From Geomonas silvestris (GTDB taxonomy: Bacteria > Desulfobacterota > Desulfuromonadia > Geobacterales > Geobacteraceae), in the NCBI RefSeq assembly GCF_014193515.1, contig NZ_BLXX01000002.1, forward strand, positions 496,001-560,000: 64,000 nt of DNA. Direction: 5' to 3'. Made by a program: the position numbers and the translations under genes. The notes beneath the pieces are model-generated. The model ran no database searches, had not been told where the DNA came from, and saw only the letters and a list, made by a program, of their open reading frames with translations. Shown here piece after piece: positions 1,034-46,208 of this stretch; positions within the stretch are counted from its first letter, which is position 1, and the number at the start of each line of letters is the position of its first letter.

Positions 1034-1124
1034 AAAGAGCTGCCGGCTGGGTATCGCGCGCCGGGAAAGGGCGCGCACGACATGTACATGAGAAATGATC
1101 GGGCAGTGGTCAAGGAGCATCCCT

Positions 1125-1421: not shown

Positions 1422-1431
1422 AGGGGCCACC

Positions 1432-7099: not shown

Positions 7100-7171
7100 C
7101 AGAATTAGCCACACTGTCAAAATGTGCTAAACTTGCGTCACCATTACTCTACTAGCCGAGGAGAGTTACTC

Positions 7172-9277
7172 ATGGATCTGCGCAAAACCCACACGACCAT
7201 ACTCAACGAAGGCGATCCGGAAGCGAAAAGAGCCGAGATTCTCCAGTACTTCCACGCCACCTTCGACATAGACGAGAAGCTGTACGAGACGCTTAAGGAG
7301 GACAGCACCTTCTATCTCAGAGCCGACCGGCTGCGCCACCCACTCATCTTCTATTTCGGGCACACGGCAACCTTCTTCGTCAACAAGCTGATCATCGCCA
7401 AGGCGATCCACGAGCGGATCAACCCGCGCTTCGAAGCGATGTTCGCGGTCGGCGTGGACGAGATGTCCTGGGACGACCTCGACGCCACCCACTACGACTG
7501 GCCCACCCGGCAGCAGGTGAAGGAGTACCGCGACAAGGTGCGCCAGATGTTGGACGGCCTGATCCGCACCCTGCCGCTTACCCTCCCCATCACCTGGGAG
7601 AACCCCTTCTGGGGCATCATGATGGGTATCGAGCACGAGCGGATCCACCTGGAGACCTCCTCGGTGCTGATCCGCCAGTTGCCTCTGGACCAGGTGCGCC
7701 CCATGGAGTTCTGGTCCATCTGCAAGGAGGCCGGCGAGCCCCCGGAAAACGAGCTGGTCTACGTGCCGGGAGGAAAAGTAGTCTTGGGGAAGGACGACAG
7801 CCATCCCCTCTACGGCTGGGACAACGAGTACGGCCGCCACGAGGCGGAGGTCGCCGGCTTCGCCGCCTCCAAGTACCTGGTCTCCAACCGCGAGTTCCTC
7901 GCCTTCGTCGAGGACGGCGGCTACCGCGAAGAGAAGTGGTGGACCGAGGAGGGGTGGAACTGGCGCAGCTTCAAGGAGGCGGAATTCCCGCTCTTCTGGC
8001 GGCGCCGCGACAACGGCTGGGCCTTACGCACCATGCTCGAGGAGATCGACCTCCCCTGGAACTGGCCGGTCGAGGTGAACTGCCTGGAGGCCAAGGCCTT
8101 CTGCAACTGGCTCGCCGCCAAGACCGGCAAGGCGATCCGGCTCCCGACCGAGGACCAGTGGAACCGGCTGCGCGACGAGGCCCAGATCCCCGACCCCCCG
8201 GCCTGGGATACGGCGCCGGGCAACGTGAACCTCGAGTACTGGTCCTCGTCCTGCCCGGTGGACCGCTTCGCCGTGGGGAACTTCTACGACGTCCTGGGGA
8301 ACGTCTGGCAGTGGACCGAGACCGCCATCTACCCGTTCCACGGCTTCCAGGTGCACCCCTGGTACGACGACTTCTCGACCCCGACCTTCGACACCCGGCA
8401 CAACCTGATCAAGGGGGGCTCCTGGATCTCCACCGGCAACGAGGCGACCCGCGAAGCGCGCTACGCCTTTAGGCGCCACTTCTTCCAGCACGCCGGCCTG
8501 CGCTACGTGGAGAGCACGGCCGCGGTCGAGGTGCAGCAGGACCCCTACGAGACCGACGCCCTCACCGCCCAGTACTGCGACGCCCACTACGGCCCGGAGC
8601 ACTTCGGGGTGCGCAACTTCCCGGTCTCGCTCGCGAAGATCTGCCTGGAACTCTCCCAGGGGCGCAAGCGCGGCCACGCGCTGGATATCGGCTGCGCCGT
8701 GGGGCGTGGCAGCTTCGAGCTGGCCCGCGGCTTCGACAAGGTCACCGGCCTCGACTTCTCCGCGCGTTTCTTCCACCTGGCGGCCCGCATGCAGGAGGGT
8801 GGTTATCTGCGCTACGCGCTCCCCGAGGAGGGCGAGATCCTCTCCTTCCACGAGATCGCCCTGTCCGACCTGGGGCTTGAGGAATCGCGCGAGAAGGTGC
8901 AGTTCTTCCAGGCCGACGCCTGCAACCTGCCGGATAAATTCACCGGCTACGACCTGGTGCTGGCCGCCAACCTGATCGACCGGCTCTACTCCCCGCGCCG
9001 CTTCCTCTCCATGATCCACGAAAGGATGAACCCGGGCGCCCTCTTGGTGATAGTCTCCCCCTACACCTGGCTGGAGAGCTTCACCAAGAAGGAAGAGTGG
9101 CTGGGCGGCTACCGGGCGGCCGGCGAGCCGGTCTACACCCTCGAGGGGCTCAACGAGGTACTCGCGCCGCACTTCGCCATGCTGGGCGAGCCGCGCGACG
9201 TGCCGTTCGTTATCCGCGAGACGCGCCGCAAGTTCCAGCACACCGTGGCCGAACTCACCGTATGGGAGCTTAAGTGA
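7172..9277 (+). CDS. ovoA: 5-histidylcysteine sulfoxide synthase / mercaptohistidine methyltransferase (ovothiol biosynthesis)
   Basis: Large fused enzyme of 701 residues. It has an N-terminal DinB-like iron domain, a middle FGE-sulfatase (SUMF1-like) domain, and a C-terminal SAM methyltransferase. OvoA joins cysteine and histidine with oxygen to the 5-histidyl-cysteine sulfoxide, and its C-terminal part N-methylates the imidazole in ovothiol synthesis. The iron motif H-x3-H-x-E is at H155, H159, E161. The FGE part shows EVNCLEAKAFCNWLA and GNVWQWTE. The methyltransferase P-loop is ALDIGCAVGRGS near residues 502-513. Length and domain order match OvoA rather than EgtB, which lacks the C-terminal methyltransferase in this form. 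Start ATG 7172 follows GAGGAG. The next gene is a PLP C-S lyase, the expected partner. Confidence 0.9.
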   Translation: MDLRKTHTTILNEGDPEAKRAEILQYFHATFDIDEKLYETLKEDSTFYLRADRLRHPLIFYFGHTATFFVNKLIIAKAIHERINPRFEAMFAVGVDEMSWDDLDATHYDWPTRQQVKEYRDKVRQMLDGLIRTLPLTLPITWENPFWGIMMGIEHERIHLETSSVLIRQLPLDQVRPMEFWSICKEAGEPPENELVYVPGGKVVLGKDDSHPLYGWDNEYGRHEAEVAGFAASKYLVSNREFLAFVEDGGYREEKWWTEEGWNWRSFKEAEFPLFWRRRDNGWALRTMLEEIDLPWNWPVEVNCLEAKAFCNWLAAKTGKAIRLPTEDQWNRLRDEAQIPDPPAWDTAPGNVNLEYWSSSCPVDRFAVGNFYDVLGNVWQWTETAIYPFHGFQVHPWYDDFSTPTFDTRHNLIKGGSWISTGNEATREARYAFRRHFFQHAGLRYVESTAAVEVQQDPYETDALTAQYCDAHYGPEHFGVRNFPVSLAKICLELSQGRKRGHALDIGCAVGRGSFELARGFDKVTGLDFSARFFHLAARMQEGGYLRYALPEEGEILSFHEIALSDLGLEESREKVQFFQADACNLPDKFTGYDLVLAANLIDRLYSPRRFLSMIHERMNPGALLVIVSPYTWLESFTKKEEWLGGYRAAGEPVYTLEGLNEVLAPHFAMLGEPRDVPFVIRETRRKFQHTVAELTVWELK

Positions 9278-31417: not shown

Positions 31418-33583
31418 TTATGCAACCTTTGCGGAAGAGGAGTCAACACTACGAGGTGGGGGATCCAAGGGGCGTGAGGGAGGGACCGCTTGGGGAGGTA
31501 CTGCGGGGAAACCGTCTACCTGGTCCGGGAACCGGCTGATGCGCAGGGAGTTGCCGAGCACGGTGAGGCTGGAAAGCACCATGGCGAGGGCGGCCAGCAG
31601 CGGGTGCAGCAGTCCGGCGACCGCGGCCGCGATCGCCAGCGTGTTGTACAGAAAACTCCAGGCCAGGTTCTGCCGGATGATCCGGCCGGTGGCCCTGCTC
31701 AGCTGGACCAGCCAGGGAACCTGTTCGAGGCGGTCGGAAAGGATCACCACGTTTCCCGCCTGACGAGCGAGATCGGTCCCCGAGCCGAAGGCGATGCCGA
31801 CGTCCGCCGCCGCCAGGGCAGGCGCGTCGTTTACCCCGTCCCCCACCATGGCGACCGTCCGCCCCGAAGCCGCCTCCTTGCGCAGTTCTGCGATCTTCTG
31901 GGTCGGGGTGCACGGCGCCTGGACGCGGTCGATGTCGAGTTCGGCGGCCAGCGCTGCGGCAGCCGGGGCGCGGTCACCGGAAAGGAGAGCGGCGGGTATG
32001 CCGAGAGTGCGTAGGCCGGCCAGACAGGTGCCGGCACCCGGACGCACGGCATCTTCGAAGACCAGGCGTGCGACCAAGAGCGCATCGAAGGCAACGTCGG
32101 CCACGCTGGCCGCATCGGGGAGGGAGGAGGCACGGGCCTCTGCGGTGCCGGGGACCAGAAAGGCGGGGCTTCCAACCGTGACCCGCTTCACTACCTGCTG
32201 CCAGGTGGTGAGCCCGCTCAGGCCGCACCCCGGAACGACCTCGACGAAGCTGGCCGCAGCGGGGGCGAGGTCACGCGCCCGAGCCTCCCGGACCAGGGCC
32301 CGGGCCAGCAGGTGCTCGCTTGCCGTCTCCAACCCCGCAACCCTCGCCAGGATCTCCCCCTCATCCAGATCGGCCGAAAGGACCCGCACCTCGCGCAGCA
32401 CTGGCTCTCCAGCGGTGAGCGTACCCGTCTTGTCGAAGAAGAAGAGGTTCACGCCGGCGAGGCGCTCCAGGACGGCCCCGCCGCGAACCACGATGCCGGC
32501 GCGTGCGGCGCGTGCCATGGCGAGTGCGGTGGCGAGCGGCGTGGCGATACCTACGGTGCAGGGGCAGGCGACCACCAGCACCGACAGGGCGCTCAGCAGG
32601 CCGCGCGAGGGGTATCCGGCGAGCTGCCAGCCAAGCAGGGATGAAAACGCCACGGCCAGTATCGCAGGAGTGAACCAGGCGGCGATGCGCTCGGCGAGCC
32701 GTTGGGCCCGGCTGGGCCGCGACCAGGCGTCCTGGATCTGGGAGACGATCCCGCGCAAGAGCAGGTCGTTGCCGGTCCGCTCCGCCTGCACCAGCAGGGT
32801 GCCGATACCGTTCACCGTACCGGCGATGACCGATTCGCCGGGGCGGCAGACCCGCGGCAGGAACTCGCCGGTGAAGGCGGCCTCCTCTATGGTGCTCATC
32901 CCCTCGACGATCTTGCCATCAACCGCGATTCGTTCCCCCGGGCGGACCCGGATCACATCGCCGGGTTCGAGCGAATCAGTGGGGACTTCGGCGACCGAGT
33001 TCCAGGAGACCCTCAGGGCGTTGGCCGGGAGCAGGGTCAGCATGCTGTTCAAGAGATCGGAAGCCTTGGCCTTGGCGGTGGATTCCAGGAGTTTTCCGGC
33101 GGTCACCAGGACCGGAAGCATGGTGGCGGTATCGAAATAGACCTCGCCGGAACCGTGCACTACGGCGAGGGCGCTCACGGTGTAGGCGCTTAAGGAGCCG
33201 AGGGCGATCAGGGCGTCGAGGCTCAACCTGCGGCCGGCGAGTTCGCGTCGTGCGCCTGCCAGAAACGGGGGGAGCAGGATGGCCAGCGCAGGGGTCGCCA
33301 GGCTCAAAAGGATCAGGCGAAAGGTAAAAACCAGGTGCGGCGCCACGCTGTCGGTGTAGAGAAGCAGCGAGATCATCATGACGTTCATGGCGAGCAGTGA
33401 GCCGAGACCCAGCCGCAGGAGGTGCCAGTTCTGCTCACCCCGCTCGGTACCAACGATGCGCGCCACCAGCCGGCAGGCCGAGCAGCAGTAGAGGGAAGCG
33501 GCGCCGCGGGCAAGCTGGGAGGGAACCGGGAGCCCGCAGTGTGCGCAGGTGCCGGGGAGGGTACTAGTTGCCGTGCTGTACAT
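31418..33583 (-). CDS. ccoI: P1B-type copper-transporting ATPase (CcoI/FixI-like)
   Basis: 721 residues. P1B heavy-metal ATPase with a Cys-rich N-terminus (C13, C16, C33, C34, C37), which may bind copper, eight membrane helices and the transport motif CPC (340-342). Phosphorylation motif DKTGT is at 384-388, and the hinge GDGVNDAP starts at 581. It probably moves copper for assembly of the cbb3-type oxidase in the same cluster. Two deviations are seen: the actuator motif is TGEF (238-241) instead of TGES, and the N-domain motif reads SEHL where HP is usual. It overlaps the TauE/SafE gene by 20 bases and is the last gene of the train. Ends near a repeat cluster. Confidence 0.9.
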   Translation of the reverse strand: MYSTATSTLPGTCAHCGLPVPSQLARGAASLYCCSACRLVARIVGTERGEQNWHLLRLGLGSLLAMNVMMISLLLYTDSVAPHLVFTFRLILLSLATPALAILLPPFLAGARRELAGRRLSLDALIALGSLSAYTVSALAVVHGSGEVYFDTATMLPVLVTAGKLLESTAKAKASDLLNSMLTLLPANALRVSWNSVAEVPTDSLEPGDVIRVRPGERIAVDGKIVEGMSTIEEAAFTGEFLPRVCRPGESVIAGTVNGIGTLLVQAERTGNDLLLRGIVSQIQDAWSRPSRAQRLAERIAAWFTPAILAVAFSSLLGWQLAGYPSRGLLSALSVLVVACPCTVGIATPLATALAMARAARAGIVVRGGAVLERLAGVNLFFFDKTGTLTAGEPVLREVRVLSADLDEGEILARVAGLETASEHLLARALVREARARDLAPAAASFVEVVPGCGLSGLTTWQQVVKRVTVGSPAFLVPGTAEARASSLPDAASVADVAFDALLVARLVFEDAVRPGAGTCLAGLRTLGIPAALLSGDRAPAAAALAAELDIDRVQAPCTPTQKIAELRKEAASGRTVAMVGDGVNDAPALAAADVGIAFGSGTDLARQAGNVVILSDRLEQVPWLVQLSRATGRIIRQNLAWSFLYNTLAIAAAVAGLLHPLLAALAMVLSSLTVLGNSLRISRFPDQVDGFPAVPPQAVPPSRPLDPPPRSVDSSSAKVA

Positions 33584-34325
33584 GAGGATCCTTCGGGCAG
33601 CAGTCCGACTCTGGAAGGGCCGGAGCGTGAGGTGCGCTTTGGGAAGTGGTGCAGCCGAACAGGTGGTGGAAGATGGTGCTGCCGCGCAAAAGCGTCATGA
33701 TCCCCAGGAGAACCAGCAAGACTGCGCCGGTCTTGGGGCGCCACAGGCGGCGCAGGACGGGGCCGCGGGCGAGTCCCCCCAGCAAAACGAGCGGCAGCGA
33801 GGTGCCGAGCCCCAGCCCGCCCAGGGTCGCCATCCCGACCGTTACCGAGCCCGAGTGCAGGGCGTAGGCGAGAAAGGCAAGAACGATGGGGCAGGGGAGA
33901 AAGCCGGAACAGACCCCGAGCAAGAGCGCGCCGGTGGGGCCGGGGGTGACCAGGAATTTCCCGGCGACGCTGCTGAAGATCTCGTGCAGCAACCCGCCGT
34001 GGGGCTGACACCCCGGCTTGAGGCCGAGCAGGTGCAACCCGGCAGCCAGGAACGCCGCACCGGTCAGGTAGCCGAGCAGGCGCTGCAGCAGGGAGAGCTC
34101 GGGGTGGAAGGCGACCAGGAAAAATCCGGCAAAACCGGCGGCGGCTCCGAGGAACAGGTAGCTGAACAGCTTGCCGAGTAACCAGAAGAGCGGCCGGTAG
34201 CTGCGCTGCTGGTCCGGCGCGGAGAGCTGCAGCAGGAAGGGGCCGCACATGCCGAGACAGTGGGCGAACCCGGCAAGGCCGCCGACCAGGCCGATCAGGA
34301 GGTGCTGGGAGAGCGTGTCGGTCAT
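33564..34325 (-). CDS. TauE/SafE-like (UreH_2) membrane protein of oxidase cluster
   Basis: 253 residues with about six to seven hydrophobic segments. The opening helix GLVGGLAGFAHCLGMCGPFLLQLS, with HC-x3-C, and FLPCPIVLAFLAYA in the second half are typical of the TauE/SafE-like UreH_2 group that is often next to ccoI in cbb3 clusters and linked to copper delivery or cytochrome biogenesis. The C-terminal tail carries Cys and His (FGCTTSQ, DCCPKDPH) that could bind metal. It overlaps the ActE gene by four bases (ATGA) and the downstream P-ATPase gene by 20 bases, so it is translationally coupled to both. Confidence 0.85.
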   Translation of the reverse strand: MTDTLSQHLLIGLVGGLAGFAHCLGMCGPFLLQLSAPDQQRSYRPLFWLLGKLFSYLFLGAAAGFAGFFLVAFHPELSLLQRLLGYLTGAAFLAAGLHLLGLKPGCQPHGGLLHEIFSSVAGKFLVTPGPTGALLLGVCSGFLPCPIVLAFLAYALHSGSVTVGMATLGGLGLGTSLPLVLLGGLARGPVLRRLWRPKTGAVLLVLLGIMTLLRGSTIFHHLFGCTTSQSAPHAPALPESDCCPKDPHVQHGN

Positions 34326-34813
34326 GGTCGAGCCAGGGAGCGCACCAGGAGTGCCAGGTACCAGCGATGCTCGGGAGGTACCACGTGCTGCAGCACCGGC
34401 TCGTGGCCGATACCGGTCAGCATGGCGCGCAGCACCTCGCCGTCGCGCAACGAGGCGGTGTGGGTGTTGCGCAGGTCCGCGGGGCGGGGGATGTAGCTCT
34501 GCCCGACCGGGCCGTCACCGGCACCGCTGTCGCCGTGGCAGAAGACGCAGTAGTAGGTGTAGTAGACCCGGGCGCGGTCCAGGTTGTCGGCAGTAGCCGG
34601 CAGCGGGTTCGTGAGGCGGGCCGTCTCCGCGGGGGTGGGGAGCCGGTCCACGAAAAGTGCCGGCTGGGTGCCGGCCGGGACGCTCGGCAGGTTCATCTGG
34701 AATTCCCGGATATGGTGCTGCGAGCGCATGCGGGGGCCCTCGTAGAGCACGAAGAACATGAGCCCGGCCACCAGAAGGGGGGGGAGCAGTAACAGGGGGA
34801 TAAGCTTTTTCAT
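34322..34813 (-). CDS. actE: Monohaem cytochrome c, ActE-like subunit of Alternative Complex III
   Basis: 163 residues. An N-terminal signal/anchor helix is followed by one cytochrome c domain with CVFCH (C89, C92, H93) in YYTYYCVFCHGDSGAGDGPV and a distal stretch with possible Met/His ligand (MLTGIGHEPVLQH). This resembles ActE, the small cytochrome c of ACIII that passes electrons to the oxidase. Here it is placed after the oxidase genes instead of among act genes, so a role as the link between ACIII and the cbb3-type oxidase is plausible. ATG 34813 overlaps the previous stop (TGATG). A soluble c-type donor is the alternative. Confidence 0.78.
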   Translation of the reverse strand: MKKLIPLLLLPPLLVAGLMFFVLYEGPRMRSQHHIREFQMNLPSVPAGTQPALFVDRLPTPAETARLTNPLPATADNLDRARVYYTYYCVFCHGDSGAGDGPVGQSYIPRPADLRNTHTASLRDGEVLRAMLTGIGHEPVLQHVVPPEHRWYLALLVRSLARP

Positions 34814-35106
34814 CACGAGGCTCCCCCGCCGGAGTGCTGCGGATTGGCAGGCAGCGGCTGCGCTTCGGGAAGCCGCGGCAGTTGGCGCCGCGGGGTTTCC
34901 GGAACGCGCGGCTCTTCGGTCGAGAAGATCGATTCGGCGGGGGTGTCGGGGAGCTGCCCGAAGTCCCACTGGCGGCCGCCGTCAGGGACGATGCAGTACA
35001 CCAGCCACCCGAACCCCATGATGGAGGCGCTGAACAGCAGGATAACCACCCAGCTCCAGGGAGGCGGCATTTCGTGATCTTCGGCGTACCATTTGGTTCC
35101 GGGCAT
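34813..35106 (-). CDS. Small membrane protein of oxidase cluster (FixP-N-like?)
   Basis: 97 residues with one hydrophobic segment (about residues 18-40) between a short polar N-terminus (MPGTKWYAEDHE) and a long Pro-rich tail. The N-terminal pattern of acidic residues, PPPWSWVVILLF and an aromatic helix recalls the FixP/CcoP N-terminal domain that anchors the dihaem subunit, but there is no haem motif. Function unproved. Its stop overlaps the start of actE (TGATG), and it follows the 92-residue protein by eight bases, so it belongs to the oxidase transcript. Confidence 0.65.
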   Translation of the reverse strand: MPGTKWYAEDHEMPPPWSWVVILLFSASIMGFGWLVYCIVPDGGRQWDFGQLPDTPAESIFSTEEPRVPETPRRQLPRLPEAQPLPANPQHSGGGAS

Positions 35107-35114
35107 GGGTCACC

Positions 35115-35393
35115 TCACCAGTTGGGGGGCATCAGAGAGCGCAGGACCAGGGACGTGATGGTGTAGGCGGCGCTGGCCAGCGACACCAGGATGATGGCCC
35201 AGGGGACGACGGCGATGAAGGCACGCAGGAAGGAGCCAGCGCCCTTGACCTCGATTTCCTCGGCCTTTTTCTCCTCTTCCTTCGGGCGCCACATGGCAGA
35301 ATAGGTGAGGCAGAACAGGAGCATGAGCGCGATCCCGGCCAAAAGCGTGGCCACGATCCACTGGTTCTGCAGCACGTACAGGTTGAAGGTCAT
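35115..35393 (-). CDS. Small two-helix membrane protein of oxidase cluster
   Basis: 92 residues with two hydrophobic segments (about residues 13-33 and 58-83) separated by a highly charged loop (RPKEEEKKAEEIEVK). No haem or metal motif and no family recognised. It starts two bases after the CcoS-like gene stop and ends eight bases before the next gene, so it is within the operon. Likely an accessory or assembly subunit of the quinol-to-oxygen system. Confidence 0.65.
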   Translation of the reverse strand: MTFNLYVLQNQWIVATLLAGIALMLLFCLTYSAMWRPKEEEKKAEEIEVKGAGSFLRAFIAVVPWAIILVSLASAAYTITSLVLRSLMPPNW

Positions 35394-35395
35394 GG

Positions 35396-35602
35396 TCAGG
35401 TTCTCCCGTGAGGCGCCGGGTCCCCATCCGGTTCGGCAGGCGGAATAGCGCTCATCAGGGGGAGGTAGCGCGCCCGGTCCTGGTCGGCGAACTGGTTCCG
35501 GTGGATCGCCCAGACAAAGAAACTGGCGATGCAGAGCAGCATCAGCACCAGAAAGCCGAGCCACATGAAGAGAAAGGCTGTTCCCTCCCAAGGACTATCC
35601 AT
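35396..35602 (-). CDS. Small membrane protein, CcoS-like
   Basis: 68 residues with one hydrophobic N-terminal segment (about 8-31) followed by FFVWAIHRNQFADQDRARYLPL. The pattern aromatic-W-A-x3-x-QF-D matches the CcoS family, a short protein needed to mature cbb3 oxidases, although the tail (EPDGDPAPH) is longer. It follows ccoO-type gene by a 162-base gap holding a GC hairpin repeat, and is closely linked to the small membrane genes that follow. The call is moderate because the protein is short. Confidence 0.6.
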   Translation of the reverse strand: MDSPWEGTAFLFMWLGFLVLMLLCIASFFVWAIHRNQFADQDRARYLPLMSAIPPAEPDGDPAPHGRT

Positions 35603-35764
35603 ACACGATCCTCCGCCAATTTCTTACACCCTCAACGCCTTCCCATCCTTCGGCTATTCCCGCTCTCACAACGCTCCCCCGCCCCTTGCGGGAGGGGGGA
35701 TCCCTAGGCTTCGGCACTTGGCGTTAGTGCTATGCCTCGGAAGCTGGGAGCCCGGCCGACCCGC
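35603..35764 (-). repeat. Short intergenic gap with GC-rich hairpin within the oxidase cluster
   Basis: No gene. An imperfect hairpin CCCCCGCCCC-TT-GCGGGAGGGGG at about 35674-35699 belongs to the same G-rich repeat family as 3979 and 31111. It could reduce transcription between the oxidase genes and the accessory genes that follow. Confidence 0.5.
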
Positions 35765-36763
35765 CTATTTCCCCGTCACCGCCCCTTCCTGTCCCGGCTG
35801 CGGATAGCGGTTTTGCCACGGTTCCTCGTAGGAGGCGTCGATGCCGCGCGGCTCGATGTTCGCGTCGGTGTACCCCACGAAGCTCACGCCCAGGTAGTTG
35901 GCAAGATCCCAGATCTTCTCCGACTCGAGGTGCTTCTTGAAGTAGGGCATCCCGGTGCCGGTGATGCCGTTCATGATCTGGTAGTAGAAGATCCCGCCGA
36001 TGTAGCGGTTCTCCACCAGGTGCCGGCGCAGCGTGGTGAAATTGAGCGGCGGCGGGTTCATGTAGCGAAAGGCCGGACCTTTGCCGTCTCCCACCGGCCC
36101 GTGGCAGTTGATGCAGAACTCCTGGTAGATCCTCTTGCCGCGCTGCAGGGAGGCCTCGGTCGCCGGGTAGGGGTTCGGCATGCGGCGCCAGACCTCGGGG
36201 ACCTGGCTGTGCAGCCACTCGACGTTCGCGTCGAGACCGCCGGCATAGGCCGCGACTGCCGGCGCCTTCCAGTGCTGTTGCCGCGCCACGCGCGCATCGG
36301 CCGCCTTGAGCCCCAGGGCCTGGACGTAAGCGGTGAGCTGGCGGATCTCCACCGGGCCCAGGAACTCCCAGGAGGGCATCAGCGAAATCGGGCTCGTGAA
36401 GCGGGGATTGACGAAGTGCGCGAGGTGCCAGTCGTCGGGGTGCTCGCCCCCTTCCTGGGAGAGGTCCGGACCGGTGCGCTCGCTCCCCAGGATCGCCGGT
36501 TCCTGCCCGACGTAGTCGCCACTCTTGGCGATCCGCTCGGCGCCGATATCCCAGTCGTTGATCCGGATGAAGAGCGAGTGGCAGTAGCTGCAGCCATTAC
36601 GCACGTAGAGCTTGTGCCCCGCCTCTTCCTCCGCGGTCATCGGCCGCCAGATCTCGGAGGGGGTCTCCTTCATGGTGAGTGCAGGGATCCCGACGATGAT
36701 GAAGGCGGACGCCCAGAAGACCAGGAGCGCACCGATGATGAGCAGGGCAGGGGTCATCTTCAT
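35765..36763 (-). CDS. ccoO: Dihaem cytochrome c oxidase subunit: CcoO-like domain fused to a cytochrome c domain
   Basis: 332 residues. An N-terminal membrane helix (about 6-28) is followed by a CcoO-type domain with haem site NGCSYCH (C58, C61, H62) in a context KLYVRNGCSYCHSLFIRI that fits the cbb3 monohaem subunit. A second cytochrome c domain follows with haem site CINCH (C217, C220, H221) in EFCINCHGPVGDGKGPAFR. Normal cbb3 oxidases have CcoO with one haem and a separate dihaem CcoP. Here a single dihaem protein may take both roles. The start overlaps the end of ccoN by four bases (ATGA), and the gene is co-translated with it. Functional equivalence is inferred. Confidence 0.85.
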   Translation of the reverse strand: MKMTPALLIIGALLVFWASAFIIVGIPALTMKETPSEIWRPMTAEEEAGHKLYVRNGCSYCHSLFIRINDWDIGAERIAKSGDYVGQEPAILGSERTGPDLSQEGGEHPDDWHLAHFVNPRFTSPISLMPSWEFLGPVEIRQLTAYVQALGLKAADARVARQQHWKAPAVAAYAGGLDANVEWLHSQVPEVWRRMPNPYPATEASLQRGKRIYQEFCINCHGPVGDGKGPAFRYMNPPPLNFTTLRRHLVENRYIGGIFYYQIMNGITGTGMPYFKKHLESEKIWDLANYLGVSFVGYTDANIEPRGIDASYEEPWQNRYPQPGQEGAVTGK

Positions 36764-38151
36764 GAGGCATCCTCCGCCCGCAGCAGCTCGACCGGCTGCA
36801 GCTCACGCCCCTGGCGCAGGGTCAGGTACAGGTTGTAGAGGCCGATGAGCGAACCGGTCAGGATGAAGATCCCGGAAGCGGCGCGGGAGATCATGAAAGG
36901 GGCGATCTCGGGGAGCACGCGGTACACGGTCTCACCGTTGTTCCAGGCGCTCCCCTGGATGAGGCCTGCCGTGGTGAGCACCAGGAAGAACGCGGTCAGC
37001 CCGAAGGTGATCAGGCCGAACTGCAGGCTGACCAGGCGCTGCGAATAGATCTCGCGCCCGCTCACCAGCGGCAGGATGTGCCACATGGCGCCGAGCGCGA
37101 TGTAGCCGCCGAAGCCGAGCATGGCGATGTGCGCGTGCCCGACGGTCCAGTTGTTGAAGTGGGTGACCCGCTGCAGGTAGGGGAGCGACTGCAGGGGGCC
37201 CTGGATGCAGGTGATCAGGTACCAGACGATCCCCCCCATGACCAGCCGGCCCGCCGGATCCCCCCAGACCCGCCTCCCCTCCTGCCGCGCCGTCATCCAG
37301 AGGTTCAACACGACGATGGAGACGGGGACGACCATGGCGATGGAATCGACCACCGAGACGGTCTTCAGCCAGTTGGGGATCGGGGACTGCAGCACGTGGT
37401 GCCCGCCGATGTGGGTGTAGAGGGCGACCAGGAACCAGAAACCGGCCAGCGACAGGGTATGCGAGTTGAGCGGCGTCCTGGTGATGCGCGGGATGACGAA
37501 GTAGGCGGCGCCGGTCGCCAGCGGGGTGATCAACAGGCCCGGGAGGTTGTGCCCCCAGAACCAGAGGAAGATCGAGTCGATGAGCCCCGGCATGGCGCCG
37601 GTCGAGGGATGCCAGACCACGTTGGAGATCGGGTAGTTCCCTGCGGTCCAGAGAAAGGAGGCCACGAAGTACCAGACCGAGACGTAGAGCTGCTGCTCGG
37701 TGCGCTGGACGATGGTCATGATCAGGTTGTAGATCAGGAGCACCACCGCGAGGATGAGGGAGATGTCGGCGATCCAGATGTACTCGTTGTACTCGCGCCC
37801 CTGGGTATAGGCGAAGGAGAACCCGAGCGGCCCGCTGGCCACGGTAAGGTTCCAGAAGAGAAAGCTGAGCCAGGCCAGCGGTTCGGAATAGAGCCGGGTC
37901 CGCAAGAGGGCCGGGAGGTAGTAGAGACCGCAGCCGGTGAGCATGGTGCCGGTGAAGCCGTAGAGCATGGTGTTGACGTGGATGGGGCGCTCGCGCCCGA
38001 AGACGAGGAAGGGGATGTTGGAGAAGAACTCCGGCGCGACCAGGTGGATGGCCGAGACCATCCCGTAGAGCGCCCCCACCACGAACCAGACGGCTCCGGC
38101 GATCAGAAAGGCGAGTGCGGCACTTTGCGGTTTTTTTACGAAGCTGAACAT
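36760..38151 (-). CDS. ccoN: cbb3-type cytochrome c oxidase subunit I (haem-copper oxidase)
   Basis: 463 residues, twelve or so membrane helices. It is the catalytic subunit of a C-family haem-copper oxidase. Sequence shows a His region RPIHVNTMLYGFTG, WFWGHNLPGLLITP, ALYTHIGGHHVLQSPIP with paired His that fit the CuB site, and TVGHAHIAMLGFGGYIALG for the haem ligands. CcoN-type features and the absence of a CuA subunit II argue for cbb3 rather than aa3. It is placed directly after the ACIII genes on the same strand; the expected electron input would be ActE or the dihaem subunit. The starting MFSFVKKPQ is supported by CGGTCTCCAAAG? weak ribosome site, so the start is likely but not certain. 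Confidence 0.9.
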   Translation of the reverse strand: MFSFVKKPQSAALAFLIAGAVWFVVGALYGMVSAIHLVAPEFFSNIPFLVFGRERPIHVNTMLYGFTGTMLTGCGLYYLPALLRTRLYSEPLAWLSFLFWNLTVASGPLGFSFAYTQGREYNEYIWIADISLILAVVLLIYNLIMTIVQRTEQQLYVSVWYFVASFLWTAGNYPISNVVWHPSTGAMPGLIDSIFLWFWGHNLPGLLITPLATGAAYFVIPRITRTPLNSHTLSLAGFWFLVALYTHIGGHHVLQSPIPNWLKTVSVVDSIAMVVPVSIVVLNLWMTARQEGRRVWGDPAGRLVMGGIVWYLITCIQGPLQSLPYLQRVTHFNNWTVGHAHIAMLGFGGYIALGAMWHILPLVSGREIYSQRLVSLQFGLITFGLTAFFLVLTTAGLIQGSAWNNGETVYRVLPEIAPFMISRAASGIFILTGSLIGLYNLYLTLRQGRELQPVELLRAEDAS

Positions 38152-38196
38152 GCGGTCTCCAAAGGGAGCTTTCGGCGCCGGGTTCCCTACGTCTGG

Positions 38197-38445
38197 TTAC
38201 TTGGTGCAGACCACGCCGCACGCGGGATCGTCGGAAGAGCAGCTGTACTTGCCGCCGGGAGTCTTGGCGGTCCAGCTGAGCGAGGTTCCGTTGCGTTTCA
38301 CGTCTGAGACCTTGACCTGGTCCGGCGTCCACCCCGCGCCGATCGCCTGGGCCGACTCCTGCTGCAGGTTCCGGGTCGCGGTGCTGGTGCAGCCGAGGGC
38401 AACCGACACGCCGATGAGTGCTGCTGTGAACAGATATCTCTTCAT
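38197..38445 (-). CDS. Small lipoprotein in the ACIII-oxidase cluster, unknown function
   Basis: 82 residues. A signal peptide ends in a lipobox VALGC (Cys about residue 19). The mature part has three more cysteines near the C-terminus in YSCSSDDPACGVVC, which could form a disulfide or bind metal. No family recognised. It follows actA by 25 bases and precedes ccoN by 45, so it belongs to the same transcript. A copper- or haem-related accessory role is suggested only by context. The ribosome site GGAAGGAGAC is upstream of ATG 38445. Confidence 0.7.
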   Translation of the reverse strand: MKRYLFTAALIGVSVALGCTSTATRNLQQESAQAIGAGWTPDQVKVSDVKRNGTSLSWTAKTPGGKYSCSSDDPACGVVCTK

Positions 38446-38470
38446 ATGCCGTCTCCTTCCGTGAGCACCG

Positions 38471-39028
38471 TCACCTGTGGCAGGTGAAACAGTCGTGGGT
38501 CGCCTTGTTCCTCTTGTGGCAGCCGATGCAGAAACCCATCTCGAACTTGTGCGCCGTCACCACCCGGTCCATCCGCTCCACGTCTCCGTGGCAGATGCTG
38601 CAGTCGATACCGCGCCGGATGTGCATCGAGTGGGTGAAGTAGACGAACTCGGGGACCCAGTTGACCCGCTGCCAGACCACCGGCCGGTTCTCCCGGAAGT
38701 ACTGGCGCAGCTTCTCGATGTAGGGAAAGGTCCTGATGATGCGCTGGTGGCACAAGAGACAGGTCTCAAGCGGCGGGATCCCGGCCCGCGAGGAGCGCGC
38801 CACCTCGGTGTGGCACATGAGGCAGCTGATCCTTTTGGTGTGCGCGTGGACCCGGTGGCTGAAGGGAATGGGCTGGCGCGGCCCCAACCCCGCCGGGTAG
38901 GGGAGGTTGAAGAGCACGAGCACCGCAACGAAGGCGAGCAGTATCACAGCCAGTGCGGCGAGCGTGGGCCAGAGGGGGCCGCGGGCTCTCCCTTTATTTG
39001 TCTCTGCTGCATCGTCGCGCGGTCTCAT
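38471..39028 (-). CDS. actA: Pentahaem cytochrome c, ActA subunit of Alternative Complex III
   Basis: 185 residues. An N-terminal helix (about 22-42) anchors a periplasmic domain with five CxxCH sites at residues 69, 90, 143, 167 and 180 (CLMCH, CLLCH, CSICH, CIGCH, CFTCH). The FSHRVHAHTKRISCLMCHTEVAR pattern and the late HSMHIRRGIDCSICHGD agree with the ActA pentahaem subunit that takes part in electron transfer in ACIII. ATG 39028 overlaps actF by four bases (ATGA), so the start is fixed. Relative to typical act operons it has moved behind actF. Confidence 0.88.
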   Translation of the reverse strand: MRPRDDAAETNKGRARGPLWPTLAALAVILLAFVAVLVLFNLPYPAGLGPRQPIPFSHRVHAHTKRISCLMCHTEVARSSRAGIPPLETCLLCHQRIIRTFPYIEKLRQYFRENRPVVWQRVNWVPEFVYFTHSMHIRRGIDCSICHGDVERMDRVVTAHKFEMGFCIGCHKRNKATHDCFTCHR

Positions 39029-40098
39029 TGTGGCTCTCCTGGCTGCTGCGCGGCCCTGCGGCTGTACTGCTGCATGCCGAGCCCCAGCATCCCCAGGAAT
39101 CCCGCCGCCAGGGAGAGTTCGCTCACGCCGAGCCGCAAGCCGGCGTCGAAGGTCGGAGCCACCAGCCACCAGCGCTCGATCCAGAGCCCGACCAGGAGGG
39201 TTAGCGAGATCCACCCCAGGGCGGCTCGGCTCCGCTTGGCGGAGATGGTGAGGAGCAGCACCAGCGGCCCGAAGTAGACCAGCCCGACCAGGAAGAAGCT
39301 CACCCCCTGCCAGGGGCGGTAGTTCATGCGCGGCACCAGGAAGCGGACCTCGTGCGGCAGGTTCTCGTACCAGAAGGGGAGCAGGTGCGCGAACATGAGG
39401 TAGGTGGTCATCATGCTGAAGGCGACGATCAGCTTCCCGAGGTCCTGCAGCTGGTCCGGGGTCGCCTCGGGCTCACGGGTGGCCAGAAGGGCCCAGCCGG
39501 TGATGGCGATGTAGAGCCCGGACATGAAGAAGTAGCCGCCGGCCAGGTTGGTGACCCACTCCGGGTCGAGCGCCATGACCAGGTCGAAGCCGATGAGGGA
39601 GAAGACCAGGCAGTAGACGAGCAGCAGCACCGGGGCGAGCACCCGGCCTGCGGGGGTGCCGCGCCGGCGCAGGTACCAGAAGGCCACGAGCCAGAACAGG
39701 AGCGTCGCCCCCAGGTCCCGGCCGAAGAGCAGGTTGTTGTCGAGCCAGGCCCCCTGGTGCAGCCTGACGCCATACCACGGCGCCCAGTCGGCGCTCCCGA
39801 CCCAGAGCAGCACCAGGGCGGCCAGGGAGGGGAGTGCGAAGCCGATGGCGGCGAAGGCGCAGCGCTCGAGCGTCAGGTGCCAGGTTCCGTTGCAGGACCT
39901 GACCAGCGCCGGCCAGACGACGAGCCCTCCGGAGAGCGAGCTGAAATAGAGGAAGTTGACCAGCAGCGAGCGCCAGGCCCGGCTGTGGTCGCCGGCCTGC
40001 AGCACCAAAAGCCAGGCGAGCGACCCACCCACCGCGAGCAGCAGCCAGACCAGGGTCCAGACCGAAAAACGTGCGCTTCCCGCGTCACTGGTGGACAT
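39025..40098 (-). CDS. actF: ActF subunit of Alternative Complex III
   Basis: 357 residues with about ten hydrophobic helices and no haem motif. It is an integral membrane subunit, consistent with ActF. Characteristic stretches are NFLYFSSLSGGLVVWPAL, the FGRDLGATLLFW segment and the long central ALDPEWVTNLAGGYFFMSGL with the acidic pair, followed by LIVAFSMMTTYLMFAHLLPFWYENLPHEVRFLVPR. The start overlaps actCD by 14 bases and its stop overlaps actA by four, showing coupled translation. It is a relative of NrfD/PsrC-like membrane proteins, but shorter in conserved content than ActC. Confidence 0.85.
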   Translation of the reverse strand: MSTSDAGSARFSVWTLVWLLLAVGGSLAWLLVLQAGDHSRAWRSLLVNFLYFSSLSGGLVVWPALVRSCNGTWHLTLERCAFAAIGFALPSLAALVLLWVGSADWAPWYGVRLHQGAWLDNNLLFGRDLGATLLFWLVAFWYLRRRGTPAGRVLAPVLLLVYCLVFSLIGFDLVMALDPEWVTNLAGGYFFMSGLYIAITGWALLATREPEATPDQLQDLGKLIVAFSMMTTYLMFAHLLPFWYENLPHEVRFLVPRMNYRPWQGVSFFLVGLVYFGPLVLLLTISAKRSRAALGWISLTLLVGLWIERWWLVAPTFDAGLRLGVSELSLAAGFLGMLGLGMQQYSRRAAQQPGEPQ

Positions 40099-41959
40099 GG
40101 ATCTCCTCCGCGTCGGTCGGCTTCAGGAGTTCCCTGAGTCGGCTCTCCTGTCCCGGTTCGCACCCCACCAAGAGACCGAACTTGTCCCTGCTGAACCTGG
40201 GGTCGTAGTACGCTACCGTCCGGCGGCGGTACAGGCGCGCCAGGACGATGAGCCCGAAGAGGTTGGCGAGGCTGCCGATCAGGATGGTCCCCTCGAAGGC
40301 GATCACGCAAAAGGGGATGAAGGAAATGGGCGGTTTCCCCCCCACGATGAGGTTGTTGACGTTGGCGGTCCCCCCCGCGAGCCAGAAGCCGCCGATGAGA
40401 CCGGAGACCGCCCCGATGAGCGTGATCAGGCGCACCGGGCTCTTGGGCTGCTTGAGCACCGCCGGGAGTTTCTCCAGCTTCACCGGCGAGAAGGTCTCCA
40501 TCTGCTGGAATCCGGCATCGCAGGCGACCTTGGCCGCCTCGAGGAGCCTCCCGGCATTGGAGAAGATGGCGAGGACACTCGGTTTGCCGGGATCCACACT
40601 CGCCTTGACGCGGGTGTCGCAGCTGCCGGTGGAGGTGATCTCCTCGTCGGCCACCTTCTCCTTCAATTCGCTCAAGGGGACCGTGGGGAGCCCCTTGGTG
40701 AAGCAGACAAAGAAGAAGAAAAAGAACCCGAAGGAGCCCAGGGTGATGCTCGCCTCGACCCAGGTGGGCCAGTAGTGCCCCCAGTTGTGCGGCAGGAAGT
40801 CGTGGGCGAGCGAGGTGAAGATGAGCATCAGGCGCTCGCTCCACATCCCGACGTTGACCAGCAGCGAGATGACGAAGAGCGAGGCGATGGTGCGGCGCAT
40901 CTTGGGGATGACGAAGAGCGCGGGAACCAGGACGTTGCAGACCACGCAGAGCCAGTAGAGCCAGGCGGCCGGCCCCCCGACGCGCCACTTGAAGAACTGC
41001 CACTCGAAGATGTCCCCCGAGTACCAGGAGATGAAGGCCTCGACCCCGTAGGAGTAGCCGACGATGGAGCCGGTGAGGATGAGGGTCTTCGCGAGCATCT
41101 CGAAGTGGTACATCTGGATGAGGCGCTCCAGGTTCAAAAGCTTGCGCATCGGGATGAGCAGGGTGAGCACCATGGCGAGCCCGGAATGGATCGCCCCCGC
41201 GACGAAGTAGGGGGGGAAGATGGCGCTGTGCCAGCCGGGCAGGAGGCTCATGGCGAAGTCCCAGGAGACCACCGAGTGCACCGAGACCACCAGCGGGGTG
41301 GCCAGCGCGGCGAAGAAGAGGTAGGAGCGCCCGTAGTGGTGCCACTGGCTGCCGGCCCCGGACCAGCCGAGGGAGAGCGCACGGTAGAACCGGGTCTTGA
41401 AGTGCTCCGGCCCCAGCTCGGATTCGTAGCGGTCGCGGGCCGCCGCCAGGTCCGGGATCATCCCGACACTCCAGAAGATGAGGCTCACCGTGAAGTAGGT
41501 GCCGACGGCGCAGACGTCCCAGACCAGGGGGCTTACGAAGTTGGGCCAGATCTCGCGCTGCGAAGGGTAGGGGATGATGTAGTAGAAGACCCAGAGGCGT
41601 CCCAGGTGGATGAGCGGGAAGAGGCCGGCGGTCATGACCGCGAAGATGGTCATGGCCTCGGCGGAGCGGGAGACGGCGTCGCGCCAGTTGGCGCGCAAGA
41701 GGTAGAGGATGGCGGAGATGAGGGTTCCCGAGTGGGCGATACCGACCCAGAAGACGAAGTTGGTGATGTAGACCGCCCAGCCGACCGGGCGGTTCAGGCC
41801 GGTGACCCCCATGCCGAGCTGGGTCTGGTAGGTCCAGCAGAGGGCGGCCCAGCCGATGAGGGCACCCAGGAAGGCGAGCGCGAAGTAGAAGGAGGCCCGG
41901 GGCCTCCCCATCGCGTTGAGGACGTCGTCGTTGATGGCACGGTAACTGAGGTCGGACAC
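40085..41959 (-). CDS. actCD: ActC-ActD fusion subunit of Alternative Complex III
   Basis: 624 residues. The first 460 or so residues form an NrfD/PsrC-like membrane domain with about ten helices, the quinol-binding ActC part, opening with SYRAINDDVLNAMGRPRASF. The last 160 residues, after KEKVADEEI, carry a soluble SVLAIFSNAGRLLEAAKVACDAGF domain and two helices (LIGGFWLAGG, FEGTILIGSLANLFGLI), matching ActD (DUF3341). In most act operons these are two genes; here one frame. The start is GTG 41959 with AAGGGGGAGC upstream. The upstream frame continues to 42880 but runs through actB and is rejected. Its 3' end overlaps actF. Confidence 0.87.
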   Translation of the reverse strand: MSDLSYRAINDDVLNAMGRPRASFYFALAFLGALIGWAALCWTYQTQLGMGVTGLNRPVGWAVYITNFVFWVGIAHSGTLISAILYLLRANWRDAVSRSAEAMTIFAVMTAGLFPLIHLGRLWVFYYIIPYPSQREIWPNFVSPLVWDVCAVGTYFTVSLIFWSVGMIPDLAAARDRYESELGPEHFKTRFYRALSLGWSGAGSQWHHYGRSYLFFAALATPLVVSVHSVVSWDFAMSLLPGWHSAIFPPYFVAGAIHSGLAMVLTLLIPMRKLLNLERLIQMYHFEMLAKTLILTGSIVGYSYGVEAFISWYSGDIFEWQFFKWRVGGPAAWLYWLCVVCNVLVPALFVIPKMRRTIASLFVISLLVNVGMWSERLMLIFTSLAHDFLPHNWGHYWPTWVEASITLGSFGFFFFFFVCFTKGLPTVPLSELKEKVADEEITSTGSCDTRVKASVDPGKPSVLAIFSNAGRLLEAAKVACDAGFQQMETFSPVKLEKLPAVLKQPKSPVRLITLIGAVSGLIGGFWLAGGTANVNNLIVGGKPPISFIPFCVIAFEGTILIGSLANLFGLIVLARLYRRRTVAYYDPRFSRDKFGLLVGCEPGQESRLRELLKPTDAEEIHVHQ

Positions 41960-42063
41960 CGCTCCCCCTTGAGAAAAACTGCAATCTCCTTTACCTACCC
42001 TGCCCGCAGAGCGAGCGAAAACATGCAAGGTGCTGCTCTTCTTGTTGCTACCCGCCTCCCGGA

Positions 42064-44970
<2,907 letters not shown>

Positions 44971-45011
44971 TGAATTCCTCGACGGTGCGCGGTGCGTGAT
45001 TGACTGTCAAA

Positions 45012-45061
45012 ATCATTAGAAAACACCAATGATGTTTTACCAAGGCGCATCTCTTTGTCAA
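45012..45061 (-). promoter_or_regulatory. Promoter and possible operator of the act-cco cluster
   Basis: Minus strand TTGACA (45061-45056), 16-base spacer, TAAAAC (45039-45034). Directly downstream is ATCATT-N10-AATGAT (45012-45033), an inverted repeat covering the likely start site. The leader to ATG 44970 is about 60 bases. A redox or oxygen regulator binding here is a guess. Confidence 0.55.
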
Positions 45062-45091
45062 GGAACGGGGTATCTTTGGCCCAAGCGCGGT

Positions 45092-45119
45092 TGACAACGT
45101 TACCCGGTAGCCTAGACTA
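45092..45119 (+). promoter_or_regulatory. Promoter of ppk2
   Basis: TTGACA (45092-45097), 16-base spacer, TAGACT (45114-45119). It leads into the PPK2 gene with a long leader of about 200 bases, where no other gene is supported. Confidence 0.5.
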
Positions 45120-45329
45120 GCAGGTAGGGCAACGTTAAGTGCCGGAAGACGTTGAAGAAATAAGAGCTGGCTTCTGCCAAGGGCAGCGAGACGCTTTCCG
45201 CGTTGCAGCGCCTTTTTTTTACAACAGCGGTTGAAGCTTTTCCGGGGGCGGGGCGGTAATCCAATGAAGCGGTACCGGGCGTCGGTAGATCTTGCGGTGG
45301 TCCGGGTCCGAGGCGCGGGGGAGGGGAGC

Positions 45330-46208
45330 ATGAAACTTGATGTGGATCAGTTCAGGGTGCGTGAAGGCGATCAGGTGACGCTGAAAAAACAGGCTACCAA
45401 GATCAAGCCGGTCTACGACTCGAAGCCGCACTACCAGGAGCTCCTGGAGGAGCACATCCTCAAGATGAGCAAGCTGCAGAGCCTGCTCTACGCCCACAAC
45501 CGGTATGCCCTGCTCCTGATCTTCCAGGCCATGGACGCCGCCGGCAAGGACAGCGCCATAAAGCACGTCATGTCCGGGATCAACCCGCAGGGGTGCGAGG
45601 TGTACAGCTTCAAGCATCCCAGTCCCGAGGAGCTCGACCACGACTTTCTCTGGCGGACCGCCCGGGTGCTGCCGCAGCGCGGGCGGATCGGCATCTTCAA
45701 CCGCTCCTACTACGAAGAGGTGCTTATCGTTCGGGTACACCCGGAGATCCTCGCGGCGGAGAACCTCCCCGAGGAGGTCGAAGACGGCAAGAACATCTGG
45801 ACCTACCGGTACCAGTCGATCAACGACCTCGAGCGGCACCTGTACCGAAACGGCACCAGGATCATCAAGTTCTTCCTGCACGTGTCCAAGGAGGAACAGC
45901 GCAAGCGCTTCCTGGAGCGCATCGACAACCCGGAAAAGAATTGGAAATTCGGCGAGGACGACATGAAGGAGCGGGCCCTTTGGAAGGAGTACCAGGCGGC
46001 CTACGAGAAGTGCCTGAATGCGACCAGCAGCAAACATGCCCCCTGGTACGTGGTGCCGGCCGACGACAAGAAAAACGCCCGGCTGATCATATCGCAGGTC
46101 ATCGTTGAGACGCTGAAGGGGCTGGACATGAAGTACCCGGAAGTTCCCGAGGAGCAGCGCAAAAAGCTGCAGGAGATACGGCAGCAGCTGGAGGAGGAAA
46201 AGGATTGA
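45330..46208 (+). CDS. ppk2: Polyphosphate kinase 2 family protein
   Basis: 292 residues, cytoplasmic, P-loop kinase fold. The Walker A loop is [15 protein letters not shown], followed by the lid region and [16 protein letters not shown], then a Walker B/lid segment [17 protein letters not shown] and [19 protein letters not shown]. These are the PPK2 signature motifs; the enzyme phosphorylates nucleotides using polyphosphate. A single PPK2 domain of this length fits class I or III. Start ATG 45330 is chosen because GAGGGGAGC is just upstream and the family begins near here; frames back to 45231 have no site. A terminator follows. Confidence 0.93.

What the first reader, a model, noticed from the sequence alone, without database searches (positions are those of the whole stretch)
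31418..44970. Alternative Complex III, a cbb3-type oxidase and copper-delivery genes in one 13.5 kb gene train
All act components (ActB, ActC+D, ActF, ActA, an ActE-like protein) are followed on the same strand by ccoN, a dihaem CcoO-like subunit, small membrane proteins, a TauE/SafE-like protein and a CcoI-type P-ATPase. Many stops and starts overlap. Known act clusters are often followed by caa3-type genes, so a cbb3-type partner is less usual. The arrangement predicts a quinol:oxygen supercomplex in which ActA/ActE hand electrons straight to the cbb3-type oxidase. The sequence also has a separate caa3 operon (1-3458). This may be a dedicated low-oxygen defence or respiration module in a mostly anaerobic lineage.
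Basis: partly seen in the sequence, partly recalled or inferred. Interest (0 to 1): 0.75.

Follow-up and report, generated by a model that had tools for sequence, protein, structure and literature searches.

The report
Quinol-to-oxygen ACIII–cbb3 respiratory operon
In this Geomonas-like iron reducer one gene train encodes both a quinol-oxidising complex and a cbb3-like oxygen reductase, and the same gene order recurs in many other, mostly anaerobic, bacteria, so the two complexes very probably work as one quinol-to-oxygen machine.

Summary
Window 31418-44970 (- strand) holds 13 genes: actB, fused actC::actD, actF, actA (five haem motifs), a small gene, ccoN, a dihaem ccoO::c fusion, three small membrane genes (q1-q3), actE (one haem), a DsbD_2 gene and a CcoI-like P-ATPase. 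The genome is a Geomonas relative (CcoN 98% identical to G. limicola).

The linkage is not a local accident. A ten-gene core is intact and in order in 23 of 24 class-sample genomes carrying this CcoN. In 80 loci fetched by CcoN alone, actA lies directly upstream in 70 of 72 with enough sequence, and q1-q2-q3-actE downstream in 62 of 64. Carriers include Desulfosarcina, Desulfatitalea, Syntrophobacteraceae MAGs, and MAGs labelled Armatimonadota, Hydrogenedentes and Phycisphaerales. The copper genes are optional.

New details: q2 resembles the detached membrane anchor of CcoP; ActE sits behind the oxidase genes; ActA and ActE bracket the oxidase. In 20 other ACIII clusters fetched for comparison ActA comes first, and 8 of 20 are followed by aa3/caa3-type genes. 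No paper that I could search describes an ACIII-cbb3 operon; the key ACIII reviews were not readable here. Direct electron transfer is likely but unproven; a stable supercomplex is plausible.

The parts
42064..44970 (-). actB: fused B1 (molybdopterin-enzyme-like, Fe4S4 Cys motif kept) and B2 (Fe-S) domains, 968 aa
   Evidence: PDB 6f0k_B; Pfam Molybdop_Fe4S4, Fer4_7, Fer4_11; Cys4 motif aligned in 56 of 57 relatives
40085..41959 (-). actC::actD fusion, NrfD-like quinol-site subunit plus ActD, 624 aa (GTG start chosen; other starts possible)
   Evidence: PF03916, PF11821; 6f0k_C 446 bits, 6lod_D and 6f0k_D
39025..40098 (-). actF, second NrfD-like subunit, 357 aa
   Evidence: 6f0k_F, 8k9e_F, 6btm_F; no Pfam match
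38471..39028 (-). actA, membrane-anchored pentahaem cytochrome, 185 aa
   Evidence: 8k9e_A, 6f0k_A, 6btm_A, 6lod_A; five CxxCH
38197..38445 (-). small lipoprotein-like ORF, 82 aa; not part of the conserved core
   Evidence: among the 24 class loci found only here and in L080; no Pfam match up to E 10
36760..38151 (-). ccoN, divergent C-family haem-copper oxidase catalytic subunit, 463 aa
   Evidence: PF00115; 9g6b_A; His ligand positions and helix-VII Tyr kept in 81 of 81
35765..36763 (-). ccoO::c, FixO domain fused to a second monohaem c domain, 332 aa
   Evidence: PF02433, PF13442; two CxxCH in 79 of 79 full-length relatives
35396..35602 (-). q1, CcoS/FixS-like small membrane protein, 68 aa
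   Evidence: PF03597 21.5 bits, below the cut-off of 23.1; relative L123 24.0 bits, above it
35115..35393 (-). q2, two-helix protein, proposed detached CcoP (FixP) membrane anchor, 92 aa
   Evidence: relative in Desulfosarcina widdelii L170 matches FixP_N 33.0 bits (cut-off 24.9), three others 15.0-20.6 bits; the window copy itself has no FixP_N match
34813..35106 (-). q3, one-helix protein with a conserved tail, 97 aa, function unknown
   Evidence: in the same place in 62 of 62 loci with a separate ActE; no Pfam match
34322..34813 (-). actE, monohaem cytochrome, 163 aa
   Evidence: best PDB match 6f0k_E, 41 bits
33564..34325 (-). DsbD_2 membrane protein; optional neighbour
   Evidence: PF13386 106 bits
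31418..33583 (-). CcoI-like copper P-type ATPase; optional neighbour
   Evidence: TIGR01525 519 bits, TIGR01511 436 bits
44971..45140 (-). upstream region with a conserved TTGACA-containing block, probable promoter of the operon
   Evidence: alignment of upstream regions: block present in 10 of 14 usable rows

Best explanation
The locus is one operon for a menaquinol:oxygen electron-transfer module made of alternative complex III plus a three-part C-family (cbb3-like) oxidase. SHOWN by sequence: the genes, their compact order, and conservation of the order across several lineages. INFERRED: menaquinol is oxidised at ActC; electrons pass to the first Fe-S cluster of ActB, down the five haems of ActA, to the haem of ActE, then to the extra haem domain on CcoO, the CcoO haem, haem b, and the haem b3-CuB site of CcoN, where O2 becomes water. 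q2 supplies the membrane anchor that CcoP normally brings; its haem part has been replaced by the c domain fused to CcoO and by ActE. No separate mobile cytochrome is needed if the complexes touch; I give a stable supercomplex about 0.55 and direct functional coupling about 0.75. The copper ATPase and DsbD_2 protein, where present, would help mature the CuB site. Likely use: respiring or removing low oxygen in organisms that are otherwise anaerobic.
For: Core actB-C::D-F-A-ccoN-ccoO::c-q1-q2-q3-actE complete and in order in 23 of 24 class-sample genomes with this CcoN. In 80 loci fetched by CcoN alone: actA directly upstream in 70 of 72 with at least 1.5 kb upstream; whole act block in order in 55 of 59 with at least 8.5 kb upstream; separate actE downstream in 62 of 64 with at least 3 kb downstream, with q1, q2, q3 between in 62 of 62. 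Phylum sample of 395 genomes: 21 carry this CcoN and 20 of the 21 have an ActD match within 5 kb (compared by eye). Act and oxidase trees agree: distance correlation ActB-CcoN 0.90 (n 57, largest of 200 permutations 0.13), as high as ActB-ActF 0.90. Catalytic His and Tyr positions kept in 81 of 81, both CcoO::c haem motifs in 79 of 79, five haem motifs (CX2-4CH) in ActA in 75 of 75. Known precedent for direct transfer: ACIII-aa3/caa3 supercomplexes (PMC5928083, PMC8552683, passages).
Against: No transcript, protein or activity data. The tree agreement has no outside control gene, so plain vertical descent would give it too. ActB of module carriers is not one clade: clusters without this oxidase nest among them (3 label changes, at least 2 forced by well supported branches), so the pairing was lost, swapped or gained more than once. 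Exceptions: Geomonas propionica lost actB, actD, actF and actA but keeps ccoN to actE; in L173 the act genes lie far from ccoN (a MAG record, possibly mis-joined); G234 has the CcoN and no ActC match (650 contigs, 85% complete); L126 and L141 lack actE downstream. The gap ccoO::c to q1 is 162 nt. F. johnsoniae does not need ActE for transfer to aa3 (PMC8552683). The own genome has other cytochrome b and other oxidase genes. An ACIII subunit gene of G. metallireducens is needed for extracellular electron transfer (PMC12285248, passages), so ACIII may also feed other acceptors.
Confidence: 0.72

Rival explanations
1. Co-regulated but separate complexes: ACIII reduces a diffusible periplasmic cytochrome pool and the oxidase draws from that pool; the operon only ensures joint expression.
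For: Geobacter relatives are rich in periplasmic cytochromes (recalled; PMC2996986 passages list many); in G. propionica the oxidase half persists without the quinol half, so it might be fed otherwise; the own genome has further oxidases and cytochrome b proteins.
Against: ActE and three small membrane genes are placed between or behind oxidase genes in 62 of 64 loci, and ActA directly before ccoN in 70 of 72; canonical CcoN in the class sample is never near ActD (closest on one contig about 135 kb, by eye).
Confidence: 0.2
2. The oxidase mainly reduces nitric oxide or another small oxidant rather than O2.
For: cbb3 enzymes can reduce NO slowly (recalled); CcoN scores far below the ccoN equivalog cut-off.
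Against: The helix-VII Tyr and the His ligand positions of O2-reducing C-family enzymes are kept in 81 of 81; CcoO-type donor and CcoS/CcoI-like maturation genes are beside it.
Confidence: 0.05
3. The pairing is neutral gene clustering or horizontal hitch-hiking without functional coupling.
For: Some carriers in distant phyla are MAG contigs close to the Geobacterales branch (L109, L111, L112, L113, L164), which fits transfer or mis-binning of a block.
Against: The order is kept where proteins have diverged to 36-44% identity in ActB and 47-54% in CcoN, while the copper genes beside it are freely lost or moved.
Confidence: 0.03

Closest known systems
ACIII-caa3 of Rhodothermus marinus (PDB 6F0K; PMC5928083, passages)
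   Same: ActA, B, C, D, E, F homologues; act genes followed by oxygen reductase genes; direct transfer through ActE to the oxidase was proposed there
   Different: partner is a CuA-containing caa3 oxidase; ActA first in the clusters of that type that I fetched; ActB1 of R. marinus lacks the Fe4S4 Cys motif that the window keeps
ACIII-aa3 supercomplex of Flavobacterium johnsoniae (PDB 6BTM; PMC8552683, passages)
   Same: same act subunits, quinol to O2 without soluble cytochrome
   Different: aa3 oxidase; sixth haem on a mobile ActA domain, whereas the window ActA has five haem motifs and the extra c domain sits on CcoO
ACIII-A2 caa3 superoperon of Acidobacteria (PMC8407424, passages)
   Same: complex III and IV genes in one superoperon
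   Different: A2-type oxidase; there the cbb3 operons are described apart from ACIII
Canonical cbb3 oxidase CcoNOP (e.g. PDB 3MK7, 9G6B)
   Same: CcoN fold and ligand positions, CcoO domain, CcoS/CcoI-like maturation genes
   Different: no dihaem CcoP found in the train; proposed split into anchor q2 and a c domain fused to CcoO; CcoN about 30% identical to the canonical ones
cbb3 operon Gbem_0121-0120 of Geobacter bemidjiensis (PMC2996986, passages)

Membership tests
Alternative complex III | ActB, ActC, ActD, ActF, ActA and ActE homologues together | tested here: met
Alternative complex III | pentahaem ActA with membrane anchor | tested here: met
   five CxxCH in the window; five CX2-4CH in 75 of 75 relatives
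Alternative complex III | menaquinol:acceptor oxidoreductase activity | not testable with these tools
   needs biochemistry
QRC (menaquinone reductase QrcABCD) | curated QrcA/B/C model cut-offs and absence of a second NrfD-like subunit | tested here: not met
   QrcC 214.5 of 400, QrcB 201.3 of 440, QrcA 79.9 of 180 bits; actF and actD present
C-family haem-copper oxidase | CcoN with haem and CuB His positions and the helix-VII Tyr | tested here: met
   alignment to 9g6b_A; 81 of 81 conserved; roles of these residues recalled
Canonical cbb3 oxidase (CcoNOP) | dihaem CcoP subunit | tested here: not met
   no CcoP gene in the train; only a FixP_N-like anchor family q2 without haem motif and a c domain fused to CcoO
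Canonical cbb3 oxidase (CcoNOP) | TIGR00780 ccoN equivalog cut-off 583 bits | tested here: not met
   258.7 bits
ACIII-oxidase superoperon | act genes directly followed by oxygen reductase genes on one strand, conserved between genomes | tested here: met
ACIII-oxidase supercomplex | physical association of the two complexes | not testable with these tools
   needs blue-native gels, cross-linking or cryo-EM

The most novel reading that the evidence does not exclude
This is the founding description of a distinct respirasome type: an ACIII-C-family oxidase with a split CcoP, in which ActA and ActE dock on either side of a CcoN-CcoO::c core and q2/q3 clamp the two halves, giving obligate anaerobes, sulfate reducers included, a one-piece proton-pumping quinol oxidase for trace oxygen.
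Probability: 0.4. Interest if true: 0.8.

Novelty: new variant of a known kind. Interest (0 to 1): 0.6.

Why it matters
ACIII is known in supercomplexes with aa3/caa3 oxidases. A conserved pairing with a cbb3-like enzyme would show that the same quinol-oxidising machine can be wired to either main oxidase class, and would explain how some metal and sulfate reducers could draw energy from, or detoxify, trace oxygen. It also suggests that ActE is not simply absent in this group of Geobacter relatives (a review statement about Geobacter sp. M21 quoted in PMC8552683) but is encoded further down the operon; M21 itself was not examined here. Culturable carriers (Geomonas, Citrifermentans, Desulfosarcina) make the idea testable.

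Tried and rejected
Glu-to-Gln change in the CcoN 'FEGP' motif as a signature of the module: rejected, because the five canonical CcoN of the class that I checked (L034-L038) also have Gln.

Fe4S4 Cys motif of ActB1 as a module trait: rejected as specific. It is kept in 56 of 57 module ActB (one gap) but also in 13 of 20 non-module ACIII; it is missing in 7 of 20, among them all five R. marinus-like clusters L188-L192.

Second PF11821 match 4.9 kb beyond the window as a second ACIII: rejected; it is a YflT-like small protein with no act neighbours recognised by the window proteins.

A single clade of module ActB: not supported. The first ActE count of 80 of 80 includes 13 rows in which the hit was the CcoO::c domain itself (seen); I used the stricter count instead. 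In one search the row L104 had a wrongly set start and was dropped (14 of 15 rows used). An FNR-type site upstream of actB was looked for in the window with a recalled consensus; the best match had 4 mismatches, so none is claimed. Internal terminators: 16 minus-strand pattern matches, 15 inside genes and one upstream of actB, none in the gaps of the operon; such matches are weak evidence either way. No structure prediction or fold search was run.

The 20 non-module clusters were chosen by me, ten from the list and ten from that (59 genomes with a match in each). Papers: 15 opened, each by passages only, none read whole; Refojo 2010 and 2012 were not seen.

Full report
What is there. The - strand from 44970 to 31418 carries 13 genes whose spacing runs from a 20-nt overlap to a 162-nt gap, with six overlaps in twelve junctions. 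ActB, ActC::ActD, ActF, ActA and ActE match the corresponding chains of solved ACIII structures; the ActE match is the weakest (41 bits). CcoN is a C-family oxidase subunit that scores 259 bits on the ccoN equivalog model against a cut-off of 583 and aligns with solved cbb3 chains. CcoO is fused to a second c-type domain. The train is preceded by a divergent PPK2 gene at 45231-46208 on the + strand.

Which organism. The window lies in a 5.1 Mb genome. The nearest named record is Geomonas limicola Red745, 98% identical in CcoN and 91% in ActB.

Is the linkage conserved? In a sample of 195 genomes of the class, 24 including the own one carry a CcoN at least 75% identical, and 23 of these have an ActD match about 3 kb away. 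All 24 loci were then examined: the core actB-C::D-F-A-ccoN-ccoO::c-q1-q2-q3-actE is complete and in order in 23. In the own genus 18 of 19 sampled genomes carry it. No other C-family match listed lies near a listed ActD match (closest on one contig about 135 kb; searches compared by eye). In a sample of 395 genomes of the phylum, 21 have this CcoN type and 20 of these have ActD within 5 kb (by eye); the exception G234 has no ActC match either and is an 85% complete genome in 650 contigs.

Wider search. A scan of genome contigs with a CcoN alignment gave 100 relatives, of which the best 80 were kept. Because it asked only for CcoN, the neighbours are an independent test. actA lies directly upstream in 70 of 72 loci with at least 1.5 kb of upstream sequence; the act block is complete and in order in 55 of 59 with at least 8.5 kb; a separate actE lies downstream in 62 of 64 with at least 3 kb, and q1, q2 and q3 lie between in all 62; a CcoI-like gene follows in 32 of 59. 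Carriers are Geobacterales isolates, Desulfosarcina widdelii and D. alkanivorans (complete genomes), Desulfatitalea alkaliphila, Syntrophobacteraceae and Desulfobacterales MAGs, and MAGs labelled Armatimonadota, Hydrogenedentes, Bacteroidetes and Phycisphaerales. MAG labels may be wrong; the last three labels sit next to the Geobacterales in the CcoN tree. In most Desulfobacterales loci ActC and ActD matches are split, in Geobacterales they are one frame.

Exceptions. L099, Geomonas propionica, keeps ccoN to actE but has lost actB, actD, actF and actA; ActC runs in frame into CcoN. In L173 the act genes are megabases away in a MAG 'chromosome' whose own act genes are also scattered, so mis-joining is likely. 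L126 and L141 show no actE downstream.

The small genes. q1 is weakly FixS/CcoS-like: the window copy is just under the Pfam cut-off, the L123 copy just over. q2 in Desulfosarcina widdelii matches FixP_N, the membrane anchor of CcoP, at 33.0 bits against a cut-off of 24.9; three other relatives score 15.0 to 20.6 and the window copy has no match. The families were collected by iterated profile search in a small set of open frames, so their unity is good but not beyond doubt. I read q2 as a CcoP anchor that has lost its haem part, with the c domain on CcoO, and ActE, doing the electron work. q3 has no known relative.

Comparison with other ACIII clusters. Of 20 non-module clusters that I picked, ActA precedes ActB in 20, aa3/caa3-type COX genes follow in 8 (L188-L195), and none has this CcoN (weak 22-24% CcoN hits in L190, L191 and L193 fall on COX1). 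In the module actA has moved to the end of the act block beside ccoN and actE to behind the oxidase, so the two electron-exit subunits bracket the oxidase genes.

Evolution. Trees of act and oxidase proteins agree (Spearman 0.90 for ActB-CcoN, n 57; 0.90 for ActB-ActF; 0.92 for CcoN-CcoO::c, n 79; largest of 200 permutations below 0.16). I had no outside gene as control. The 81 module CcoN form a group with SH-aLRT 87 against the outgroups used. ActB of the carriers is not one clade; clusters without this oxidase nest inside. The pairing was therefore lost or replaced, or gained, more than once.

How it most likely works. Shown: gene content, order, conservation of ligand positions. Inferred from known ACIII and cbb3 biochemistry: menaquinol oxidation at ActC, electrons through ActB and the five haems of ActA to ActE, then to CcoO::c and CcoN, where O2 is reduced. 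Direct contact is likely because the exit subunits travel with the oxidase genes, and because ACIII-aa3/caa3 supercomplexes exist (PMC5928083, PMC8552683; passages). Against certainty: ActE is dispensable for this transfer in F. johnsoniae (PMC8552683), and an ACIII subunit of G. metallireducens is needed for extracellular electron transfer (PMC12285248, passages), so ACIII may serve more than one acceptor.

Literature. Searches listed no paper whose title or abstract start describes ACIII paired with a cbb3 operon; 'ACIII-cbb3' had no occurrence in the 20 of 97 papers listed. PMC8407424 (passages) describes ACIII-A2 caa3 superoperons and separate cbb3 operons. PMC2996986 (passages) lists Gbem_0121-0120 as a second cbb3 operon without mention of ACIII. 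PMC8552683 (passages) reports from an earlier survey that Geobacter sp. M21 lacks ActE in its ACIII cluster. The two halves thus seem to have been reported apart. The reviews most likely to hold an earlier mention were not available.

Verdict. A real, conserved ACIII-C-family oxidase operon: a new variant of a known kind.

Noticed in passing
L070 and L099 (Geomonas propionica Red259): ActC runs in frame into CcoN (open frame of 883 aa) while actB, actD, actF and actA are gone; q1 to actE remain.
   Followed up: partly
   Followed up: partly
window 42064-44970: ActB1 keeps a Fe4S4 Cys motif that R. marinus and 8k9e ActB lack; it divides ACIII clusters into two sorts.
   Followed up: yes
L079 4855-5421 + (4.9 kb past the window): Weak PF11821 ActD match that is a YflT-like stress protein, a likely false lead for annotation.
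   Followed up: yes
window 7124-9277 +: DinB_2, FGE-sulfatase and methyltransferase domains in one protein, the layout that I recall for OvoA-type ovothiol enzymes.
   Followed up: no
window 1-3458 +: caa3 operon end: COX3, COX4_pro, COX2 with two c-type domains, UbiA.
   Followed up: partly
window 44971-45140: Upstream block with TTGACA conserved in 10 of 14 usable Geobacterales rows, and a TTGACA/TAGACT pair on the + strand towards PPK2.
   Followed up: partly
window 38197-38445 -: 82-aa lipoprotein-like ORF inserted between actA and ccoN; of 24 class loci only here and in L080.
   Followed up: no
L173 (CP070697, MAG): ccoN to actE intact but ActC/D/F at 2.99 Mb and ActB at 5.64 Mb of the record, perhaps mis-joined.
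   Followed up: partly
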